From contig JAEUUU010000080.1 of assembly GCA_016787345.1 (NCBI GenBank), positions 1 through 35,482 of the forward strand: a stretch of 35,482 bases of DNA. The letters run 5' to 3'. Below, piece by piece: positions 1 through 35,482 of the stretch. Positions within the stretch are counted from its first letter, which is position 1. The number at the start of each line of letters is the position of its first letter. The notes under the pieces were generated by a model. That model had not been told where the DNA came from. It saw only the letters and a program-made list of their open reading frames with translations, and did no database searches. Source of the DNA: Saprospiraceae bacterium. Lineage in GTDB: Bacteria; Bacteroidota; Bacteroidia; Chitinophagales; Saprospiraceae. The translations under genes were made by a program, and so were the position numbers.

Positions 1-98
1 ACCCATAATACTATTGATCGTGGCATTGGCTAATAATCGCGGGTCACTGCTGCGCTCAACATCGCCGACCTGGAGGTCGGCGCTACAGCGGCGCTACA
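1..98. repeat. Right part of a 159-bp palindromic repeat (copy A, cut by window edge)
   Basis: This segment matches the right half of the repeat seen complete at 6974-7132 and 8383-8541: GGCATTGGCT, then TAATCGCGGG, a spacer, then GCCGACCTGGAGGTCGGC followed by GCTAC. It ends a few bases from the stop codon of the WG-repeat gene, the same 3'-end position that the other copies occupy. The left half lies outside the window. Confidence 0.75.
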
Positions 99-101
99 GG
101 G

Positions 102-1211
102 CTACAGTTCGCGCCAAACCACCCCGCCAAACCGATCGATATACTGCCATGTACCGCCACCCGCTACAACAAGCGCCAGGCCATCGCGAAACGGCGTTGC
201 GGCTTCATACGCTGCAGGAATGACAATGTGCCCTTCTGTATTGATGTATCCCCAGTGCCCATTGCTGCGTACCTGTGCCAGTCCTTCGGAAAAAACACCC
301 GCGTCTTCGAACTTGGGCATGATGGCCAGTTTGCCGGCCCGGTCGATGTAGCCGAATGCACCGTTGATCTCTACCAGCGCCAGTCCTTCGCCAAAATCGC
401 CGGCCAGATCGAACATGGGTTCTACTGCCAGGCGTCCGTTTTGATCCACAAAGCCATACTTGCCGTCGCGAAAAGCCAGCGCCATGCCATCGAAAAACTC
501 GCCGTGGGAATGGCCTTTCACGAATTCGAACTGCGGCTCCAGCAAGATGCGGCCATTGCGGTCGATGAGTCCCCAGCGGCCCTTTTCCGCCACTACAGCT
601 ACTTCGTTCTGAAAACTTTGTGCGATATCCCACTGGGCGGGCAACACAAATTTGCCCTGCCGGTCGATAAAGCCCCAGCGCCCGTCGCGGGCAGCCGGCG
701 CCAGCCCCTTGTTGAAATCGCCGGCAGCCTCCAGGGTGGGAGGGATGGAAAATTCACCGTTGACATGAAGAAACCCGGTGCGCTCATTGAAGCGTACGGC
801 CGCCAGTCCCTCGTGAAAATCGCGCGCATCCTCAAACCGGGGCACTATGGCTTCGCGCCCCCGGCGGTCGATAAATCCCCAGGCCTGCACGACCTGCACG
901 CGGGCCAGGTCTTCTTCAAAAGAGCCGATAAAACGATAGGCCCTCCGCAAATAAAGCCGGCCGAGGGCGTCGATCAGCACCCAGCGGTCGTTGAGCCGCA
1001 CACAGGCGAATCCGTTGTAAAAATCGCCCGCTTCGAGGTATTGCGGCTCGATCTCCACTTCGCCTTCGGCATTGATGAAGCCGTAGTAGCCTTTTTCACG
1101 GATTTTGAAAAGCGGTTTTTTCACGGAGCAAATATTGGAATGGGCAGCGAAGGTAAGCGCATGCTCGGGATTTTCATTTACCCCGAACGTCGGCAGCATC
1201 GCGCAAACCAT
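102..1211 (-). CDS. WG-repeat (KWG) protein
   Basis: The 369-residue product is built almost entirely of about ten WG repeats, each roughly 35 residues with the pattern [WY]G[FYL]ID..G...I.P.[FY]..A..F..GLA.V. Clear examples are GRWGFIDRQGKF, GKYGFVDQNGRL and GHWGYINTEGHI. WG-repeat proteins are widespread in Bacteroidota and are thought to form beta-rich binding surfaces; no catalytic residues are evident. The ATG at 1211 overlaps the upstream permease gene by 38 bp. A GTG at 1124 (protein beginning VKKPLFKIREKGYYGF) would remove the overlap and start directly before the first repeat, so the start is uncertain. There is no convincing signal peptide from either start, which suggests a cytoplasmic protein. 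It is the last gene of the leftward run that begins with meaB. Confidence 0.85.
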   Translation of the reverse strand: MVCAMLPTFGVNENPEHALTFAAHSNICSVKKPLFKIREKGYYGFINAEGEVEIEPQYLEAGDFYNGFACVRLNDRWVLIDALGRLYLRRAYRFIGSFEEDLARVQVVQAWGFIDRRGREAIVPRFEDARDFHEGLAAVRFNERTGFLHVNGEFSIPPTLEAAGDFNKGLAPAARDGRWGFIDRQGKFVLPAQWDIAQSFQNEVAVVAEKGRWGLIDRNGRILLEPQFEFVKGHSHGEFFDGMALAFRDGKYGFVDQNGRLAVEPMFDLAGDFGEGLALVEINGAFGYIDRAGKLAIMPKFEDAGVFSEGLAQVRSNGHWGYINTEGHIVIPAAYEAATPFRDGLALVVAGGGTWQYIDRFGGVVWREL

Positions 1212-2253
1212 TACCCACGAGGTTAAAAGCCAGCACCGTCAGGACGATTGCCAGGGCCGGCGCCAGGGACATCCAGGGTTTGCCGCCGATGGCATAGCCG
1301 TAGTTTTCATTGAGCAAAGTGCCCCACGACGGCGACGGCGGCTGCACGCCGAAACCCAGGTAACTCAGTCCTGACTCCAGCAAGATAGCCGTAGCGAAAT
1401 TGCCGGCAGCCAGTACCAGCACCGGGCCGATCAAATTGGGCAATACATGCCGCCGGAGAATACGACCGGCGCCCATACCCATGCTGTGCGCGGCCTCAAC
1501 AAACGGCATTTCGCGCAGCGACAACACCTGGCCGCGCACCAGTCGGGCCACATCCACCCACATCGTGAGGCCAACAGCCAGAAAAATTATACCCACGCCG
1601 CGCCCCAGCGCCAGCACGATGGCAAATACCAGGAGCAGGGTAGGGATCGACCAAATGGTGTTGATCAGAAGCATGACCAGATCGTCGGTGCGACCGCCGA
1701 AATAGCCGCCCACCGCGCCGAGAGCGATGCCGATGGTGAGGGAGATAAACACGGCGATCAGTCCCACCGTGAGCGATACGCGAAAGCCCAGCAAAAGGCG
1801 GCTCAGGATATCGCGTCCGTATTTGTCGGTGCCCAGCCAGAATGTGCGGGAGAAGACATAACTGCCGTCGGCACGAGGCGCCAGCTGACTCAGCGCGACC
1901 CGCTCTTCCGCAGCGCCCGCCCCCCTGCGTTCAAACGACAAAGAATCGCCCGACACTGTTGTTTTCCCGACCGGCGTCCAGCGGTCGGCAGGCGGCCCGC
2001 CGGCCCACAGGCGCTCGGGCAGACTGGCCGGCTCGGGCGTTCGCGGGAGCCGGAATGCCACGAAATCGCAGCGAAACCCCGGCGCCTGCAGGGCTATTTC
2101 CGCGATTTGCCGGTTGGCATCGGGGGTATCGTCGGGCGCAAGGGCATAGCCGAAAACAGCCAGCAGCACCTCGGCCGCGATCAGCCAAAGGGCGACGAGT
2201 GCCGTCCGGTTGCGACGGAAACGCTGCCAGGTTTTGCGGGTTTCGGGGTTCAC
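1174..2253 (-). CDS. ABC transporter permease, OppC/DppC type
   Basis: The 359-residue protein is an inner-membrane permease of the peptide/nickel type. An N-terminal membrane segment (about residues 17-37) is followed by a long extracytoplasmic stretch (about 38-135), then the BPD transport domain with about five more segments. The domain shows the cytoplasmic EAA loop (EAAHSMGMGAGRILRRHVLPN) that docks on the ATPase, and the family signature LLESGLSYLGFGVQPPSPSWG. The stretch before the second segment contains FWLGTDKYGRDILSRLL, typical of DppC/OppC. The start is a GTG that overlaps the stop of the upstream lipoprotein gene (GTGA). No partner permease, ATPase or solute-binding protein is next to it, so the substrate cannot be inferred from context. 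Confidence 0.92.
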   Translation of the reverse strand: MNPETRKTWQRFRRNRTALVALWLIAAEVLLAVFGYALAPDDTPDANRQIAEIALQAPGFRCDFVAFRLPRTPEPASLPERLWAGGPPADRWTPVGKTTVSGDSLSFERRGAGAAEERVALSQLAPRADGSYVFSRTFWLGTDKYGRDILSRLLLGFRVSLTVGLIAVFISLTIGIALGAVGGYFGGRTDDLVMLLINTIWSIPTLLLVFAIVLALGRGVGIIFLAVGLTMWVDVARLVRGQVLSLREMPFVEAAHSMGMGAGRILRRHVLPNLIGPVLVLAAGNFATAILLESGLSYLGFGVQPPSPSWGTLLNENYGYAIGGKPWMSLAPALAIVLTVLAFNLVGNGLRDAADVRGK

Positions 2254-2726
2254 AGTCCGAGGGCTTTTCCGGCCAGTTTGCCGAGGCCGCCGCCGATTTT
2301 GGCGCTCATTTTGGCCACGAAAGCGTACTGGTTGTATTTGCGTTTGAATTTGGGCCCGAGGTCCATCAGATCGTCGAGGTAGGGCTTTTGCGCGATCCGA
2401 ACGGCCAGGGAGGCCTTCCCGACCATATCGAGGTTGCTCTGCCAGCGCTCCGCTTCGCCGAGAATCTTGTTCATGGCCGCTTCGTTCTGGTCGTGGTATT
2501 TCTGAACGTACTTGATGCCCTTGCGCGGATCGACGAATTTGAGGTCTTCGCGAATAAACTGCAGATAGTCTTCAATCAGACCGTCCATTTTTTGTTCCGG
2601 CGACATGCTGCTGTTGGCGATCCGGGTCAGATTGGCCCGGTGCGCAGCCAGCCATTTGTTTTGCTGCCACGAGGCGCAGCTGTGGAGGAGGAGCGGGAGG
2701 GCGAGGAGGAGGAAAAATCTTTTCAT
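2250..2726 (-). CDS. Small lipoprotein of unknown function
   Basis: A 158-residue protein starting MKRFFLLLALPLLLHSCASW: a lipoprotein signal peptide with the lipidated Cys at position 17 (LHSC, an imperfect lipobox). The rest is charged and helical, with a Gly-rich C-terminus. I do not recognise a named family. Its ATG overlaps the stop of the four-helix-bundle gene (ATGA), and its stop overlaps the GTG of the permease gene, so translation of the three is probably coupled. The ATG directly abuts the 9-bp repeat array at 2725-2764, so the region just upstream of its start was reshaped by that array. Confidence 0.8.
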   Translation of the reverse strand: MKRFFLLLALPLLLHSCASWQQNKWLAAHRANLTRIANSSMSPEQKMDGLIEDYLQFIREDLKFVDPRKGIKYVQKYHDQNEAAMNKILGEAERWQSNLDMVGKASLAVRIAQKPYLDDLMDLGPKFKRKYNQYAFVAKMSAKIGGGLGKLAGKALGL

Positions 2727-3133
2727 TGATTCGATTGATTCGATTGATTCGATTGATTCGATTGTCGGGTTCTCAGCGTTTTCCTGACAGTTCCGATAGA
2801 TGCTACTGTTATAGCGATGAGTTCATTGGCTTCTTTATAAAGTGGTACAACATACGTTCGAAGGTCGGGCGCAAGGGCCACGATAAATTCAAGCCAGAAC
2901 ATGGATTCGTCCAATTCTTCTTCGACAATTTTCAATTTATTGAGAAAGTCTTTTCCGGACTTTCGTCGACAGGCTGCTCTGTAATTGGCCGCGGCTGAAG
3001 GTGCTGATCGCACAATTTGGTTTCGAACAGATTTGAACTCCGGGCTATCCGGCAATTGCCTGGTGAGCAAAACGACAGAAACCGCCCAATCTTTCATTCT
3101 TCGATTAAGTTCTTCTGCATTCATCGTTTTCAT
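2723..3133 (-). CDS. Four-helix-bundle protein of the S23 / 23S-rRNA intervening-sequence family
   Basis: 136 residues. The core (about 1-120) has family features: a basic N-terminus, SVVLLTRQLPDSPEFKSVRNQIVRSAPSAAANYRAAC (helices 1-2 with the conserved R-S-x-x-S/A-x-x-A-N-Y segment), KSGKDFLNKLKIVEEELDESMFWLEFI (helix 3), and a last helix LYKEANELIAITVASI. This family is found as ORFs in 23S rRNA intervening sequences and is related to Avd of diversity-generating retroelements; its molecular role outside those contexts is unknown. The last 13 residues are the repeat QSNQSNQSNQSNQ, translated from the flanking 9-bp array. It lies 14 bp downstream of meaB, and its stop overlaps the next gene's start (ATGA). 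The inverted arrays on both sides suggest it arrived as a unit. Confidence 0.85.
   Translation of the reverse strand: MKTMNAEELNRRMKDWAVSVVLLTRQLPDSPEFKSVRNQIVRSAPSAAANYRAACRRKSGKDFLNKLKIVEEELDESMFWLEFIVALAPDLRTYVVPLYKEANELIAITVASIGTVRKTLRTRQSNQSNQSNQSNQ
2725..2764. repeat. 9-bp tandem array, ATTCGATTG orientation
   Basis: Four perfect copies of ATTCGATTG at 2729-2764, preceded by a partial ATTG at 2725-2728. On the minus strand the unit reads CAATCGAAT and is in frame, coding Q-S-N at the end of the four-helix-bundle protein. It is the inverse of the array at 3156-3197, and the pair brackets the four-helix gene. Confidence 0.95.
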
Positions 3134-3147
3134 GTTGATTAAGTTTA

Positions 3148-4185
3148 CTACCGTTCAATCGAACCAATCGAACCAATCGAATCAATCGAATCAATCGTCC
3201 AATTTCTCAACGTTTCTTCCGCTGCCGCGAATGGCGACATACGGCCTTCGAGAACGGCCGGTTCGAGGGCGGCCAATCGCTGGCGCACGGCGGGGTGGTT
3301 ATAAAATGTGCGCAACAGGCCTTCGTGCAGGGCCTCGCGGAGCCAGTATTGGGCCTGGCGGCGGCGGTTTTCCGTCCAGCCGCCATTGTCGGTCAATAGT
3401 TTGCGGTACGCTTTTGCGGCGACCCACACTTCGTCGATGCCATTTTTTTCCTGGGCGCTGCAGGTGAGTACGCGGGGCGTCCAGCCGCTCGATTGAGCAG
3501 GAAACAGGTGGATAGCGTTGCGATACCAGGCCTGCGCCTGTTTGGCCAGTGCGATGCGGTCGTTATCGGCTTTATTCACGACCAGCAGGTCGGCCATTTC
3601 GACAATACCGCGTTTGATGCCCTGTAATTCGTCGCCGGCCCCGGGCAGGAGGAGCAACAGAAAAAGGTCGGTCATGCTGTGCGCGGCAACTTCCGATTGC
3701 CCTACGCCCACGGTTTCCAGCAACACGGTCGTGTAACCGGCCGCCTCGACGAGCAGGATGGTTTCACGGGTTTTACGCGCCACGCCACCCAGCGAATCGC
3801 CCGACGGAGAGGGCCGGATAAACGCCCGTTCGGAGACCGATAACTGCTCCATGCGGGTCTTGTCGCCCAGAATACTGCCACCGCTCACGGCACTGCTGGG
3901 ATCGATCGCCAACACGGCCACCCGCTCGCCCTGATCGACGAGATAGGTGCCCAGCGCCTCGATAAACGTGCTTTTACCCACTCCCGGCGACCCGGTGATG
4001 GCAATTCGGTACGAATCGGCGGGCTTGTCGGGCCGCTCCAGCAAACGGCCGATCACCTCCCGGGCGACCGCCTGGTGCTCCGGCTTGCTGCTTTCCACCA
4101 GCGTGATTGCCCGACCCAGGACAATTCGGTCGCCGGCAAGGATGCCGTTTACGTAAGCGTCGACGGAAAGAGGATTGCGAGGCAT
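3148..4185 (-). CDS. meaB: Methylmalonyl-CoA mutase-associated GTPase MeaB (ArgK family)
   Basis: A 345-residue G3E-type P-loop GTPase that loads and protects adenosylcobalamin in methylmalonyl-CoA mutase. Visible motifs are Walker A GSPGVGKS (65-72), AIDPSSAVSGGSILGDKTRM (93-112), switch/Walker B region LLETVGVGQSEV (155-166), and the guanine-specificity motif NKAD (204-207). The C-terminal helical dimerisation region follows. Length is close to the family norm, but the last 14 residues (DSIDSIGSIGSIER) come from the 9-bp repeat array, so the native terminus has been replaced or extended. No mutase gene is in the window. It heads a leftward run of closely spaced genes. A weak -7-like element (CATATTTG) lies on the minus strand at 4223-4216. 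Confidence 0.95.
   Translation of the reverse strand: MPRNPLSVDAYVNGILAGDRIVLGRAITLVESSKPEHQAVAREVIGRLLERPDKPADSYRIAITGSPGVGKSTFIEALGTYLVDQGERVAVLAIDPSSAVSGGSILGDKTRMEQLSVSERAFIRPSPSGDSLGGVARKTRETILLVEAAGYTTVLLETVGVGQSEVAAHSMTDLFLLLLLPGAGDELQGIKRGIVEMADLLVVNKADNDRIALAKQAQAWYRNAIHLFPAQSSGWTPRVLTCSAQEKNGIDEVWVAAKAYRKLLTDNGGWTENRRRQAQYWLREALHEGLLRTFYNHPAVRQRLAALEPAVLEGRMSPFAAAEETLRNWTIDSIDSIGSIGSIER
3156..3197. repeat. 9-bp tandem array, CAATCGAAC/T orientation
   Basis: Four and two-thirds copies: two of CAATCGAAC, two of CAATCGAAT and a final CAATCG. The array is inverted relative to 2725-2764. On the minus strand it codes the C-terminal tail DSIDSIGSIGSIER of MeaB. The graded C/T difference between units suggests local expansion of one unit type. 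Confidence 0.95.
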
Positions 4186-4586
4186 GGGTTTAATGTGCTA
4201 ATGTGCTAATGGGGCCAAATATGCGGACAAGTAGTGTGGATGCGGCGGTTAAAGTTTATTAAGAAAAGGGAGAGGTGGGCATTAACCAAAATTCAACTTT
4301 TTGAGAATCAAATGTTTATTTGTTAAACAAGTGCACTGATTTTGATACAAGGGTTAAAGTTCGTTAATGAACATCTGGAAGTGGAGCGACCTATTGCACC
4401 AAACCGTCTTGGGGTATCAATTTGCAGGCGTCGGTGGTGTCCGGCCCGATAGAAACCTCGCGAGCGTCCGGTGCGTGGTGGGTCGGCGCCGCCGATTTTT
4501 GTCGTACGACTGTCGAAAAACCTTCTGTGCAAAGGGTTGTTTTGCGTGAAATTATGGCGTTTTTTGCCCGCTATCTTTCGAACAAC
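4186..4586. other. Intergenic region between divergent meaB and GDSL esterase genes
   Basis: About 400 bp without a convincing gene. It holds a short tandem TGTGCTAA repeat at 4194-4210, an imperfect direct repeat GGTTAAAGTTTATTAA (4247-4262) / GGTTAAAGTTCGTTAA (4352-4367), and a small palindrome TTGTTAAACAA around 4320-4330. Readthrough from 4422 in the esterase frame is possible, but the lipoprotein signal sequence at 4587 argues against that longer start. Promoters in both directions must lie here; TATCTTTC at 4572-4579 is a weak -7 candidate for the esterase, but is very close to its start. Confidence 0.5.
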
Positions 4587-6951: not shown

Positions 6952-6973
6952 GTAGCGCCACTGTAGCGCCACT
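6952..6973. repeat. 11-bp direct repeat GTAGCGCCACT x2
   Basis: Two exact copies of GTAGCGCCACT, followed by GTAGCGCC, the first bases of the large palindromic repeat. It begins 2 bp after the stop of the EAD11-like gene and looks like slippage or staggered duplication of the repeat's terminal sequence. Confidence 0.85.
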
Positions 6974-7132
6974 GTAGCGCCGACCTCCAGGTCGGCGATG
7001 CTACGGGCAGAAATGAACCGCGATTAACTGCCAGTGCCGGAAGCGCTCCTGCTTATCTAACGATCATGGCATTGGCTTTTAATCGCGGGGTGTTTCTTCT
7101 CTCAACTGCGCCGACCTGGAGGTCGGCGCTAC
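6974..7132. repeat. 159-bp nested-palindrome repeat, copy B
   Basis: It starts GTAGC(GCCGACCTCCAGGTCGGC) and ends (GCCGACCTGGAGGTCGGC)GCTAC. The termini are inverted repeats and each is itself an 8-bp-stem palindrome (6979-6996 and 7110-7127). Inside, AACCGCGATTAA near the left pairs with TAATCGCGGG near the right, and the GCCA(A/G)TGCC region with GGCATTGGC. The whole element could fold as one long hairpin or a cruciform. No ORF is present in it. Confidence 0.9.
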
Positions 7133-7276
7133 AGGCGGCGATGCTACGGGCAGAAGTGAACCGCGATTAACAGCCAACGCCAGGAACGTATCTGCTCTTC
7201 TTTCAATCGTAGCATTGGCTGGTAATCGCGGGGTATTTCTTCTCTCAGACTCGCCGACCTGGAGGTCGGCGCTACA
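7133..7276. repeat. 159-bp-type repeat, copy C, lacking its left terminus
   Basis: Directly joined to copy B. It begins within the left arm (GGCGATGCTACGGGCAG), carries the inner AACCGCGATTAA / TAATCGCGGGG arms, and ends with GCCGACCTGGAGGTCGGC (7253-7270) plus GCTAC. Only the left-terminal palindrome is missing, which fits recombination between two copies sharing one terminus. Confidence 0.85.
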
Positions 7277-7303
7277 GGGGCGCTAAAATGACACTATAAG
7301 CCA

Positions 7304-8330: not shown

Positions 8331-8371
8331 AAAAAAAGCGCGCCTGGACGGCCATTTCGTCCAGGCGCGCT
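8331..8371 (-). terminator. Rho-independent terminator for ppiC transcript
   Basis: A perfect 14-bp GC-rich stem (AGCGCGCCTGGACG at 8337-8350, CGTCCAGGCGCGCT at 8358-8371) with a 7-nt loop. Read on the minus strand it is followed by a run of seven T (8337-8331). Orientation fits the end of the PpiC-type gene's transcript, which would therefore include the palindromic repeat 8383-8541 in its 3' untranslated region. Confidence 0.85.
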
Positions 8372-8382
8372 GTAGCGCCGCT

Positions 8383-8541
8383 GTAGCGCCGACCTCCAGG
8401 TCGGCGATGCTACGGGCAGTAGCAAACCGCGATTAATAGCCAATGCCAGGAACGTATCTGCTCATCTAGCGATCGTAGCATTGGCTTGTAATCGCGGGGT
8501 ATTTCTTCTCTCAGACTCGCCGACCTGGAGGTCGGCGCTAC
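8383..8541. repeat. 159-bp nested-palindrome repeat, copy D
   Basis: Same length and architecture as copy B: the left terminal palindrome GCCGACCTCCAGGTCGGC at 8388-8405, inner arms AACCGCGATTAA and TAATCGCGGGG, and the right terminal palindrome at 8519-8536 followed by GCTAC. It lies 19 bp from the stop of the PpiC-type gene. An extra TGTAGCGCCGC unit precedes it at about 8371-8381. Confidence 0.9.
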
Positions 8542-8560
8542 AGGGGCGCTACAACGGCGA

Positions 8561-10543
8561 TCAAGGGCGACGGACCAGGCTTTTCAAAACCTCTTCATTC
8601 ACCTTGACCGGATATTCCTTGCGCAGTTCTTCGATCCATTGTTTTTCCAGGTAGTCCTGATAGTCGGCCACAGCATAGCCGCGGGCGTCGGAAAGCCCCT
8701 TGGCAGCAGGCGGTTCGATGCTTTCGACTTTGAAAAACGCGGTGGTTTTGGCGGTAGCGTCTGTTTTGGATTCGCTCATGGCGCCGGCTTTCCATTTGCC
8801 TTCGAGGTCTTTGTTTTTGCCTTTTTCAAATTTCTTTTCCGTCACCGACACGACTTCCGGCTGTCCTTTTTTGTTGAATTTTTTCAGCACGTCGGCCGAA
8901 GGCTTTTTAGCAGCCAGATCGCGAACCTTTTGGGCAAGTACGGGGTCGTCGGTTTTGATGGTATAAAAAGTGACGGTAGCGCGTTCATCCCACTTGTATT
9001 TTCCGGCGAGTTGCGCCTGGAAATACTGTTCGAGGCCCGTGGTATCGGTATTGGCGCGGTCCCAGACGTACTGTTTGGTCGCATCGAAAAGCAGGATACC
9101 TTCTTCGTATTCGCGCATAAGCGATTTGAAATCGGGGTATTTGTTTTCGAGCTGCGACTCTTCGAACTGCATGGTGGTTTCGTCCTTCCAGCTCTTGTAG
9201 AGTTTGTTGATCGTTTCTTCCACCGGGTAGCCTTTGCCGCGCATACGGTCGCGGCTGGCGCGCAGGCAGTAGTCTTCAAAGTCGGAAAGGGTGTATTTTT
9301 TATCGCCGAATTCCATCAGCACGATGTAAGCCTTGTTGGGGCTGGGTTTCCAGCGGAAGGTGTGGAAAAGCGTGTCGTGTTGTTGGGCCGTCCAGCGTTG
9401 CAGCACTTCGGGGTATTCCTTGAAATTGCTTTCGCGCTGAATACGGCTGATCATGCTTTGTTTGGCGATTTCGCTGCGACTGTCGCGTTTGACCCGTTCG
9501 GTGAGGCTTCGTTTGGATTGTTCGAAGGTACCCACGCCGCGATGGCTGACGCGTTTGATGATATGGTAGCCGATGGTGGTTTCGACGGGCTGGGTGTAGT
9601 CGCCGTCTTTGGCAAGGGCAAATGCGGCATCCTCGAAACCTTTTTGATAGCGGTTGATGCCGAAAAAGCCGATATAGCCTCCTTTAGCGGCGGTATTTTT
9701 ATCTTCTGAATAGCGGGCGCAGACTTCGTCCCATTTGGCGCCGGTTTGCAGCAAGGCATAAATACTGTCGGCTTTCATACGGGCCTGCGCCTGTTTTTCG
9801 GGGGTATCGCCTTTGCGGATCAGGATTTGAGCGACTTCCATTTCGCCACGCGCGGGCCGGAAACCATTGACACGGATGACGTGGTATCCGCCGTTGGAAC
9901 GTACCGGGCCTACGATATCGCCGGGTTTGGCGCTGTACACGGCTTTTTCCATGGCATAATACCCGTCGGGCAACATGGCATTGACGTAGCTGAGGTTGCC
10001 TCGGTTTTCTTTCACCGTTTTGTCCATGGAGCTGTCGATAGCCAGTTGCTCGAAGTTTTTGCCGCTGCGAGCCAGACGCAACAGGTTGTTGGCGCGGTTG
10101 TAGGCGGTAAGGGTATCTTTGGCGGAAGCGTTGCGGTCGCAGGCAATAAAGATGTGACTGATATCGACATCCTGCTGCATGCGGTCATAGGCCTCGCGCA
10201 CGAGTTTGTCGGTCACTTCCTTGTCAATCAGATACGAATTGGCCAGTTGCCGGCGATAGCCGTCAAGTTCGGTTTTGGTGGCCATCACCGTATCGAGCTT
10301 CATATCGCGCGCTTTCTGGACCTTGAGTTTGAATTTGATGTAGAGGTCGAGGTATTCGCGGAGCGAGGCTTCGGAAAAGTCGGCTTTGTCCTGGTTGGTT
10401 TTGGCGTAGATGTATTTGAATTCATCGACGCGAACAGGATTGCCTTTGACCGTAAATAGCACCGGATTGGTATCCTGGGCCTTGGCGGAGCCTGCCAGTA
10501 TCAGGAACAGGCCGCACAGGGCGAACAGTTGTTTGAACATCAT
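8561..10543 (-). CDS. Periplasmic PpiC-type peptidyl-prolyl isomerase (SurA/PrsA-like foldase)
   Basis: 660 residues. The signal peptide is MMFKQLFALCGLFLILAGSAKA. A SurA-like N-terminal helical region follows (about 25-125). There are two PpiC/parvulin rotamase domains: about 128-228 (DISHIFIACDRN...FEQLAIDSSMDKTVKENRGNLSYV...PGDIVGPVRSNGGYHVIRV) and about 234-335 (EVAQILIRKGDT...WDEVCARYSEDKNTAAKGGYIGFF...TTIGYHIIKR). A long C-terminal region (about 340-660) has no recognised enzymatic motif and is typical of large Bacteroidota members. The role is probably chaperone or isomerase for outer-membrane and secreted proteins. It has its own promoter (10596-10603) and terminator (8331-8371). Confidence 0.93.
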   Translation of the reverse strand: MMFKQLFALCGLFLILAGSAKAQDTNPVLFTVKGNPVRVDEFKYIYAKTNQDKADFSEASLREYLDLYIKFKLKVQKARDMKLDTVMATKTELDGYRRQLANSYLIDKEVTDKLVREAYDRMQQDVDISHIFIACDRNASAKDTLTAYNRANNLLRLARSGKNFEQLAIDSSMDKTVKENRGNLSYVNAMLPDGYYAMEKAVYSAKPGDIVGPVRSNGGYHVIRVNGFRPARGEMEVAQILIRKGDTPEKQAQARMKADSIYALLQTGAKWDEVCARYSEDKNTAAKGGYIGFFGINRYQKGFEDAAFALAKDGDYTQPVETTIGYHIIKRVSHRGVGTFEQSKRSLTERVKRDSRSEIAKQSMISRIQRESNFKEYPEVLQRWTAQQHDTLFHTFRWKPSPNKAYIVLMEFGDKKYTLSDFEDYCLRASRDRMRGKGYPVEETINKLYKSWKDETTMQFEESQLENKYPDFKSLMREYEEGILLFDATKQYVWDRANTDTTGLEQYFQAQLAGKYKWDERATVTFYTIKTDDPVLAQKVRDLAAKKPSADVLKKFNKKGQPEVVSVTEKKFEKGKNKDLEGKWKAGAMSESKTDATAKTTAFFKVESIEPPAAKGLSDARGYAVADYQDYLEKQWIEELRKEYPVKVNEEVLKSLVRRP

Positions 10544-14891: not shown

Positions 14892-15127
14892 GGGTGTTGG
14901 GTTTTGGGCGTTGGGTTTTGGCAAAAGGATTATTGCTGCTCTCTGTGAATGCTTTGGATTACAGGAAAAAATGAACCCAATGGGGCGAAATATTCCTTCA
15001 ATTCGCTGTGCTGAAATGTGAACAGAAATAACCCTTTTGCCAATACCCAACCCCTAAAACCCAAAACCCGATTCGAGAGCAGCAATAACCCTTTTGCCAA
15101 AACCTAAAACCCAACACCCAACACCCC
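14891..15127. repeat. G-rich imperfect inverted repeat between convergent genes
   Basis: The left arm (14891-14943) is a series of GGGTTTTGG-like words, then GGCAAAAGG and ATTATTGCTGCTCTC. The right arm (15075-15127) is its inverse; the inner 30 bp pair with one mismatch, while the outer G-rich parts diverge but keep the same words. A second, shorter copy of the right-arm sequence lies at about 15029-15070. The segment fills the whole gap between the GH57 and GbsR-like genes, and could act as a bidirectional terminator or be a small non-autonomous repeat. Confidence 0.85.
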
Positions 15128-26912: not shown

Positions 26913-26983
26913 CGAAAAATATTGAGGATTTGAGGATGTGAAGATGCAAGGATTTGACCGCGCATCGCTTATGGTCCGCAGCC

Positions 26984-34869: not shown

Positions 34870-35390
34870 TTCTAAAATTCATTCGCTAATCGCAAATCGA
34901 CCCAATCGAATATCGGAAATCAGCCTCCCGCCTCGCCGGAGGATTTGCGATTTCCGATTGGGCCGATATCCGATTTGCGATTGGATTGGTGATTTTTGAT
35001 TGCATCCCGATCCCAAATCCTCATTCTAAAATCCATTCGCTAATCGCAAATCGATCAAATCGAATATCGGAAATCAACCTCCCGCCTCGCCGGAGGATTT
35101 GCGATTTCCGATTGGGCTGATATCCGATTTCCGATTGGATTGATGATTTTTGATTGCACACCAATCCCAAATCCACATTCTAAAATCCATTCGCTAATCG
35201 CAAATCGACCAAATCGAATATCGGAAATCAGCCTCCCGCCTCGACGGAGGATTTGCGATTTCCGATTGGGCCGATATCTGATTTCCGATTGGATTGATGA
35301 TTTTTGATTGCATCCCGATCCCAAATCCACATTCTAAAATCCATTCGCTAATCGCAAATCGATCAAATCGAATATCGCAAATCAACGCCC
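34870..35390. repeat. 154-bp tandem repeat array with internal inverted repeats
   Basis: Three full units start at 34870, 35024 and 35178 (spacing exactly 154 bp), and a partial fourth runs from 35332 to about 35390. Units differ by only a few substitutions. Each begins TTCTAAAATCCATTCGCTAA and contains a CCTCC...GGAGG hairpin core, flanked by AATCG/CGATT-rich arms that pair imperfectly (e.g. ATATCGGAAATC with GATTTCCGAT and GATATC). Open frames across it are periodic artefacts of the repeat. It fills the gap between the terminator and the last gene. Confidence 0.92.
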
Positions 35391-35482
35391 GCCTCCCGCG
35401 TCATGCCACCGATGAAACACCCCTTTCACGTCGCGCTGCTCCCTGATCGCCTCCATTTGTTGTAAATGTTCGGCCGACAGAA
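35382..35482 (-). CDS. 3' end of a leftward gene cut by the window
   Basis: Only the last 32 codons are visible before TGA at 35384-35382: LSAEHLQQMEAIREQRDVKG then VFHRWHDAGGGR. The residues look like a normal soluble protein end (amphipathic helix, then a basic segment). The final GGGR codons and stop lie at the edge of the 154-bp repeat, so the repeat may have supplied the terminus. Family cannot be assigned from this fragment. Confidence 0.5.
   Translation of the reverse strand, partial: LSAEHLQQMEAIREQRDVKGVFHRWHDAGGGR

What the first reader, a model, noticed from the sequence alone, without database searches (positions are those of the whole stretch)
2725..3197. Four-helix-bundle (S23-type) gene bracketed by inverted 9-bp repeat arrays: a possible mobile unit
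Seen: the gene at 2723-3133 lies between ATTCGATTG x4 (2729-2764) and its inverse CAATCGAAC/T x4.7 (3156-3197), total about 473 bp, inside an otherwise tight operon. Known: S23-type four-helix proteins are encoded in 23S rRNA intervening sequences whose ends are inverted and base-pair. Inference: this is the same kind of element placed in a protein operon, with the arrays acting as termini that could pair in RNA or DNA and with the protein possibly binding the stem.
Basis: partly seen in the sequence, partly recalled or inferred. Interest (0 to 1): 0.78.

Follow-up and report, generated by a model that had tools for sequence, protein, structure and literature searches.

The report
Four-helix gene inside mobile-like repeat hairpins
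A small gene of unknown function sits between two mirror-image arrays of a 9-letter repeat, and the same arrangement, with the repeat changing in step with the protein, recurs around most relatives of this gene tested in its genus and a good part of those tested elsewhere, which points to an unrecognised class of tiny mobile elements.

Summary
Arrays and gene are real: (ATTCGATTG)4 at 2729-2764 and (CAATCGAA[CT])4.7 at 3156-3197 can pair as a ~40-bp stem with a TIGR02436/PF05635 four-helix (S23-type) gene in the loop. It is not a local curiosity. Six of the seven such genes in this genome are bracketed by inverted arrays of 7-9-bp units, the unit differing between genes; the seventh lies beside a reverse transcriptase and has none. 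Of 83 such genes examined in the genus 72 pass an inverted-arm test, against 8 of 795 control sites and 5 of 153 control genes; in 80 loci from many phyla 30 pass, against 0 of 271. The unit follows the protein clade between genomes (0 of 2000 permutations as strong). CGATTG arrays are abundant in 9 of 42 genomes; 8 of these carry the window's protein clade, 0 of the other 33 do. Best reading: mobile-type hairpin elements whose gene-bearing form encodes the four-helix protein, like 23S rRNA intervening sequences in anatomy and RAYT/REPIN in logic. Movement, binding and the enzyme are inferred; the window's own locus offers no empty site to test.

The parts
2725..3197 (.). Whole hairpin unit: arm, four-helix gene, inverted arm
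2729..2764 (+). Arm 1: (ATTCGATTG)x4 (partial unit from 2725); encodes the C-terminal (NQS)n tail of the four-helix protein on the - strand
3156..3197 (-). Arm 2: (CAATCGAA[C/T])x4.7 as read on +; on the coding (-) strand it is the G/T-rich arm 5' of the gene; overlaps the 3' end of MeaB
2723..3133 (-). Four-helix bundle (S23/IVP-type) gene, 136 aa, TIGR02436/PF05635; only PDB sequence match 2RLD
   Evidence: dN/dS 0.09 against the sister species
3148..4185 (-). MeaB GTPase, upstream neighbour; last residues encoded by arm 2
2250..2726 (-). Lipoprotein-like gene (my reading of its N-terminus; no Pfam or NCBIfam match), downstream neighbour; start codon overlaps the end of the four-helix ORF

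Best explanation
The 473-bp unit is the gene-bearing form of a family of small mobile-type hairpin elements: [G/T-rich tandem array of a 7-10-bp unit] - loop - [inverted array]. In the gene-bearing form the loop holds a TIGR02436 four-helix gene; in gene-less forms, which outnumber it in the part of this genome that was read, the arms enclose other short sequences or nothing. I propose that the four-helix protein, probably as an oligomer, recognises its own unit in the arms and helps hairpins with that unit to be copied to new sites with the help of host or other enzymes. SHOWN: anatomy, recurrence around most family members tested in the genus, fixed polarity, covariation of unit and protein, co-occurrence of dispersed arrays with the matching protein clade, two 90%-identical copies in one genome with homology ending at the arms, presence/absence between sister species, purifying selection. 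INFERRED: binding, action in trans, and the copying route.
For: Own genome: 6 of 7 family genes bracketed by inverted arrays with 5 different units. Genus: 72 of 83 examined pass IR>=36, against 8 of 795 sites and 5 of 153 control genes. Global: 30 of 80 against 0 of 271. Polarity: the 5' arm has G>C in 70 of 73. Protein-unit covariation in cross-genome pairs without shared flanks: mean 5-mer containment 0.38 at >=55% identity against 0.075 below 45%; 0 of 2000 permutations. Dispersed CGATTG arrays: 8 of 9 array-rich genomes carry the window clade at >=65% identity, 0 of 33 others (Fisher 7.6e-8); array-rich genomes lie in about six places of a MeaB tree; CGATTG hits lie beside the clade copy in G041 (C679:1507-1566) and the fragment in G020 (C86:34469-34573). 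Second unit (ATGATGA): 10 of 10 genomes with a >=58% homologue have >=14 hits, against 9 of 32. Paralogues L011/L012: 90.3% over 496 bp, ending at the arms. Presence/absence: L139 against L143, L143 against L246, L010 against L107. dN/dS 0.05-0.39 in the five pairs with a usable value.
Against: No transposition or excision was observed and none of the four proteins here matches a recombinase. The window locus has no empty site. The sites without the gene are not blank in G007/G009: they hold another or a shorter hairpin, so loss or replacement is possible. G015 has many arrays of both units but one four-helix gene, with no match to either query (77% complete). G010 has a 60% homologue and no CGATTG hit. 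G015, G016 and G053 have >=78 ATGATGA hits without a close L011 homologue. 11 of 83 genus genes fail the arm test, as do 10 of 13 from other families of the order and 50 of 80 in the global set. Covariation is also expected from co-inheritance of gene and arms. The thresholds (36; 65% and 58% identity; 14 hits) were set after seeing the data.
Confidence: 0.6

Rival explanations
1. Landing-pad model: inverted short-unit arrays are genomic hairpins of independent origin, and small mobile sequences, four-helix genes among them, insert at the hairpin loop; the protein has nothing to do with the arrays.
For: In G009 a 397-bp sequence lies at the dyad axis where G007 has a nearly loop-less hairpin, and a 675-bp one where G007 has a minimal hairpin; the two inserts share a repeat and neither showed a four-helix ORF by eye. 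Own-genome arrays enclose several different cores.
Against: Does not predict that the unit follows the protein clade or the 8 of 9 against 0 of 33 co-occurrence, nor that only 1 of 71 small control genes has such arms.
Confidence: 0.22
2. Ordinary simple repeats: slippage-grown short tandem repeats and hairpins that act as terminators or RNA stabilisers at gene borders; the association is compositional.
For: Arrays change by whole units (sister species differ by one 9-bp unit) and units turn over in place (CGATTGGTT against CGATTTG).
Against: Control sites and genes of the same loci rarely pass (8 of 795, 5 of 153); fixed polarity; 59 of 75 arms are strongly periodic; array-rich genomes are scattered on the MeaB tree and marked by one protein clade.
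Confidence: 0.08
3. Another mobile system moves the hairpins in trans (RAYT/Y1 transposase, an IS acting on MITEs, or a reverse transcriptase), with the four-helix protein as passenger or RNA chaperone.
For: One gene-less array element in G009 is a clean 647-bp insertion with terminal GTAAAATCTTAGG repeats and a short target duplication that I read as 8 bp, like a nearby 157-bp MITE. Y1_Tnp is found in 34 of 42 genomes, including all 9 CGATTG-rich ones.
Against: Of 19 genomes with >=14 ATGATGA hits, 2 have no Y1_Tnp match and 8 no RVT_1 match, while all 19 have a four-helix gene (tallied in 89); these are mostly drafts. Of 20 Y1_Tnp genes fetched, 10 have inverted repeats of their own, none with tandem periodicity.
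Confidence: 0.1

Closest known systems
23S rRNA intervening sequences with S23p (e.g. Coxiella IVS, PMC4990558; passages read)
   Same: Same protein family, ORF in the loop of a stem made by terminal inverted repeats (28 bp there), element of about 0.4-0.5 kb; mobility there only hypothesised
   Different: Here in a protein operon; arms are tandem arrays of a short unit; gene-less hairpins with the same unit elsewhere in the genome; RNase III excision not tested
REPINs with RAYT (PMC3116915; passages read)
   Same: Gene next to hairpin repeats, non-coding hairpins of the same type dispersed in the genome, several types per genome each beside its own gene, proposed co-evolution of gene and repeat
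   Different: No Y1 transposase; arms are 7-10-bp tandem arrays, not palindromic REPs; Y1 genes of the same genus have repeats of another kind
Heptamer arrays of Xanthomonas/Nostoc (GGGAATC type, PMC4692102) and TAACTGA arrays of Beggiatoaceae (PMC4679880); passages read
   Same: Short-unit intergenic arrays; in Xanthomonas 70 and 75 convergent inverted pairs in two genomes
   Different: Main texts have 0 occurrences of 'S23', 'four helix' and 'intervening'
DGR accessory protein Avd (PMC10053308; passages read)
   Same: Related four-helix family; the seventh family gene of this genome (L015) overlaps a reverse-transcriptase gene
   Different: L015 has no arrays; the six others of the genome do

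Membership tests
TIGR02436 / PF05635 four-helix (S23, IVP) proteins | Match above the curated cut-off | tested here: met
   68.5 bits against 24; 45.2 bits against 33.8; PDB 2RLD E 5.6e-9
23S rRNA IVS | Located in a 23S rRNA helix | tested here: not met
   Lies between meaB and a lipoprotein-like gene
23S rRNA IVS | Ends pair as a stem with the ORF in the loop | tested here: met
   Array-array stem of about 40 bp, MFE -156.4, z -7.06 (prediction)
23S rRNA IVS | Excision by RNase III | not testable with these tools
   Needs RNA end mapping
REPIN/RAYT | Y1 (HuH) transposase gene in the element | tested here: not met
   The single gene is TIGR02436
REPIN/RAYT | Dispersed non-coding hairpins of the type next to the gene | tested here: met
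   108 hits; 15 inverted pairs in the stretches read, 14 without the gene
Insertion sequence / MITE | Recombinase gene, defined terminal repeats, target-site duplication | tested here: inconclusive
   No recombinase match among the four proteins tested; duplication not testable at the window for want of an empty site; one gene-less array element in G009 has IS-type ends and a short duplication
DGR Avd | Adjacent reverse transcriptase with TR/VR | tested here: not met
   The three RVT_1 matches of the genome lie on contigs C118, C146 and C117, none on the window's C65; of the 7 family genes only L015 is on one of these contigs

The most novel reading that the evidence does not exclude
S23-type four-helix proteins are the coding half of a cross-phylum class of miniature mobile elements that use no known recombinase: each protein clade recognises its own 7-10-bp unit, repeated with a spacing set by the oligomer in both arms of a hairpin, and spreads such hairpins in trans. 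The 23S rRNA intervening sequences would be members that landed in rRNA helices, and DGR Avd a domesticated relative.
Probability: 0.4. Interest if true: 0.92.

Novelty: new variant of a known kind. Interest (0 to 1): 0.8.

Why it matters
The function of S23/IVP proteins and the suspected mobility of IVS elements are open questions (the passages of PMC4990558 that I read give mobility only as a hypothesis). If array unit and protein clade go together across genomes, the question becomes directly testable: purify a few proteins and ask whether each binds its own unit. It would also give a gene to short tandem arrays of Bacteroidota and other bacteria that so far have none, and add a second RAYT/REPIN-like partnership without a known transposase.

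Tried and rejected
Empty site at the window locus: MeaB was found in 42 of 42 genus genomes; of the 30 loci held, lipoprotein and oppC follow it only in G000 and G048, so no empty junction could be read. Reverse transcription and Y1 transposition as general movers: no match in several array-rich genomes, but most are drafts and absence is weak. Insertion of CGATTG arrays at blank sites: in 600 kb of G009 only 5 nonamer sites were found (3 in the 600 kb of G007). One did not map to a short G007 interval; four did, and all four G007 intervals already held CGATT-type units; two of the four are the arms of the shared L148/L146 element. Arm-copying test: of 20 long-armed elements, 9 had the order of unit variants mirrored between arms (permutation fraction <=0.05), 11 did not, so the arms are only partly copies of each other. 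dN/dS for two further pairs gave no usable value (dS undefined). Structure prediction was not run; family and PDB matches sufficed. L252-L257, fetched around clade copies in G052, G041, G043, G020 and G009, were not analysed further.

Selection of rows: the 96 genes are 7 own genes, 29 loci returned and 60 matches in 59 stretches fetched (a 60th stretch, L161, repeats L097 and was dropped). One search did not list all matches, and I left out some near contig ends. The covariation test used 73 of the 75 with IR>=36; the two left out, L119 and L146, have a stop in the reading frame and gave too short a protein. The threshold 36 was set after seeing the control distribution (99% at 37). The global set is the best 80 of 560 relatives and leans to Bacteroidota and to the query's clade. 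The 20 Y1_Tnp genes are my pick from the list.

Full report
WHAT IS THERE. On the - strand the order is meaB (3148-4185), a 136-aa four-helix gene (2723-3133), a lipoprotein-like gene (2250-2726), oppC. Two arrays of one 9-bp unit lie in inverted order around the four-helix domain: 2725-2764 and 3156-3197. Each also codes: one for the (NQS)n tail of the four-helix protein, the other for the last residues of MeaB. As RNA the arrays are predicted to form a stem of about 40 bp with the ORF in the loop, MFE -156.4 kcal/mol against -117.5 (sd 5.5) for 100 shuffles.

SISTER SPECIES. G048 (MeaB 96% identical) has the same four genes and arms. One arm is longer by exactly one 9-bp unit, and the protein is under purifying selection (dN/dS 0.09). 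In the other 28 MeaB loci examined neither the lipoprotein, oppC nor the four-helix gene was found beside MeaB.

THE RULE BEHIND IT. The genome has 7 TIGR02436 genes. Six are bracketed by inverted arrays of different units: GAGGATTT, GTTTATAAG, ATGATGA (two genes), GATTTAA, ATTCGATTG. The seventh (L015) has none and overlaps a reverse-transcriptase gene, with a repeated RGGGW...LGFRVAR stretch nearby that resembles DGR variable/template repeats (the DGR label rests on this and on recall). An inverted-arm score was computed for 96 family genes: 75 reach 36 or more (72 of 83 in the genus, own genome included; 3 of 13 from other families of the order), against 8 of 795 same-geometry sites in the same loci and 5 of 153 other genes (1 of 71 small ones). 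59 of the 75 arms are periodic, most often with period 7. In 80 named loci from many phyla (Bacteroidota, Acidobacteria, Planctomycetota, Chloroflexi, Clostridia, Proteobacteria, candidate phyla among those that pass) 30 pass, against 0 of 271 control sites, mostly with periods of 7, 14 and 21; 50 of 80 do not. The arm 5' of the gene is richer in G than C on the coding strand in 70 of 73 (genus and order set), and in 25 of 30 with 2 the other way (global set).

UNIT AND PROTEIN GO TOGETHER. Leaving out pairs within a genome and pairs with shared flanks, 2427 pairs of 73 genes were compared. Arms share few 5-mers when the proteins are below 50% identical (mean 0.06-0.11), more at 50-60% (0.19) and many at 60-80% (0.38-0.60); 0 of 2000 permutations match this. 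The window protein and L148 of G009 are 75% identical and have the same nonamer, in different places: MeaB of G009 is on another contig.

GENE-LESS HAIRPINS. In this genome CGATTGNTTCGATTG occurs 108 times (which did not list every place). In the 27 stretches read plus the window I count 15 close inverted pairs, each in the order ATTCGATTG - loop - CAATCGAAT. Only the window's holds the gene; 9 hold a nested GGCCTCCCCC inverted repeat. Several further arrays are single or cut by a contig end. Across 42 genus genomes the pattern is frequent (19-205 hits) in 9 and nearly absent (0-4) in 33. A window-clade protein at 65% identity or more is found in 8 of those 9 and none of the 33. Several copies look decayed: the matched stretches of G052, of both G041 copies and of one of two G007 copies contain stops, and that of G020 is a fragment beside an array. 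The exception is G015. On a MeaB tree of 38 genomes the array-rich ones sit in about six places (one protein, 16 of 35 inner branches well supported). A second unit gives the same trend less sharply: 10 of 10 against 9 of 32. The three genomes with no TIGR02436 match (G002, G013, G054) have no hit for either unit.

SIGNS OF MOVEMENT. L011 and L012 are two copies in one genome, 90.3% identical over 496 bp that start and end in or within some 15 bp of the arms. G007 and G009 (mean 95% identical where aligned) differ: the place of the L139 gene of G009 holds in G007 a 48-bp hairpin with part of the same inner palindrome, and the place of the L143 gene of G007 holds another hairpin in G009. G023 lacks the L010 element where its flanks (70-81% identical) match. 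In none of these is the direction, gain or loss, known. Among 37 clean indels of 80-1500 bp between G009 and G007, three are the clearest array elements: a 647-bp gene-less element with a target duplication that I read as 8 bp, and 675-bp and 397-bp sequences placed between arms that in G007 enclose a few bases or none; four more (143, 206, 221, 228 bp) include array stretches. Units also change in place between the sisters.

HOW IT PROBABLY WORKS. The protein is conserved and selected while the arrays are dynamic, yet their unit tracks the protein. The simplest account is that the protein recognises its unit, and hairpins with a recognised unit are kept or multiplied. This is the logic of RAYT and REPIN, without a transposase domain. 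The enzyme that cuts and joins is unknown; reverse transcriptase and Y1 transposase each have no match in some array-rich drafts. Of 20 Y1 genes fetched, 10 have inverted repeats of their own, without tandem periodicity, so the two systems appear separate.

LITERATURE. In the listings of eight searches of the held library (five of them, matched more papers than were listed) I saw no paper that links TIGR02436/S23 genes with short tandem arrays; passages of seven papers were read, none in full. Preprints and most subscription journals are not held, so priority is not established.

Noticed in passing
window 14892-15126: Another inverted short-unit array (GGGTGTTGGGTTTT... / ...CCAAAACCTAAAACCCAACACCC) with a nested GGCAAAAGG inverted repeat, without a four-helix gene; same G-first polarity.
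   Followed up: partly
window 26922-26957: TTGAGGAT array, a unit like that in the arms of the L009 four-helix gene of this genome.
   Followed up: no
window 34870-35395: 154-bp unit repeated 3.4 times, itself built of GATTTCCGATT-type heptads in inverted order.
   Followed up: no
window 40-125, 6952-7282, 8368-8400, 8530-8562: Palindromic repeat around CGCCGACCTGGAGGTCGGCGCTACA or parts of it at several places, partly in 143-bp tandem copies.
   Followed up: no
window 4191-4211 and L163 about 1354-1494: Octamer array (TAATGTGC and related units) before meaB: 2.6 copies here, a much longer array in the sister species.
   Followed up: no
L072 1859-3809: Probable DGR: avd-like ORF antisense to and overlapping a reverse-transcriptase gene, with repeated RGGGW...LGFRVAR stretches upstream.
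   Followed up: partly
G009:C3 and G007:C1 (L258-L277, L377-L416): Several small palindromic insertion families (ends GTAAAAACTTAGG or GCGAATCAAGGGTTG, some with short target duplications) differ between two sister species.
   Followed up: partly
L047, L054, L066 and others: Nested GGCCTCCCCCAGCCCCTCC inverted repeats inside gene-less ATTCGATTG hairpins of this genome.
   Followed up: partly
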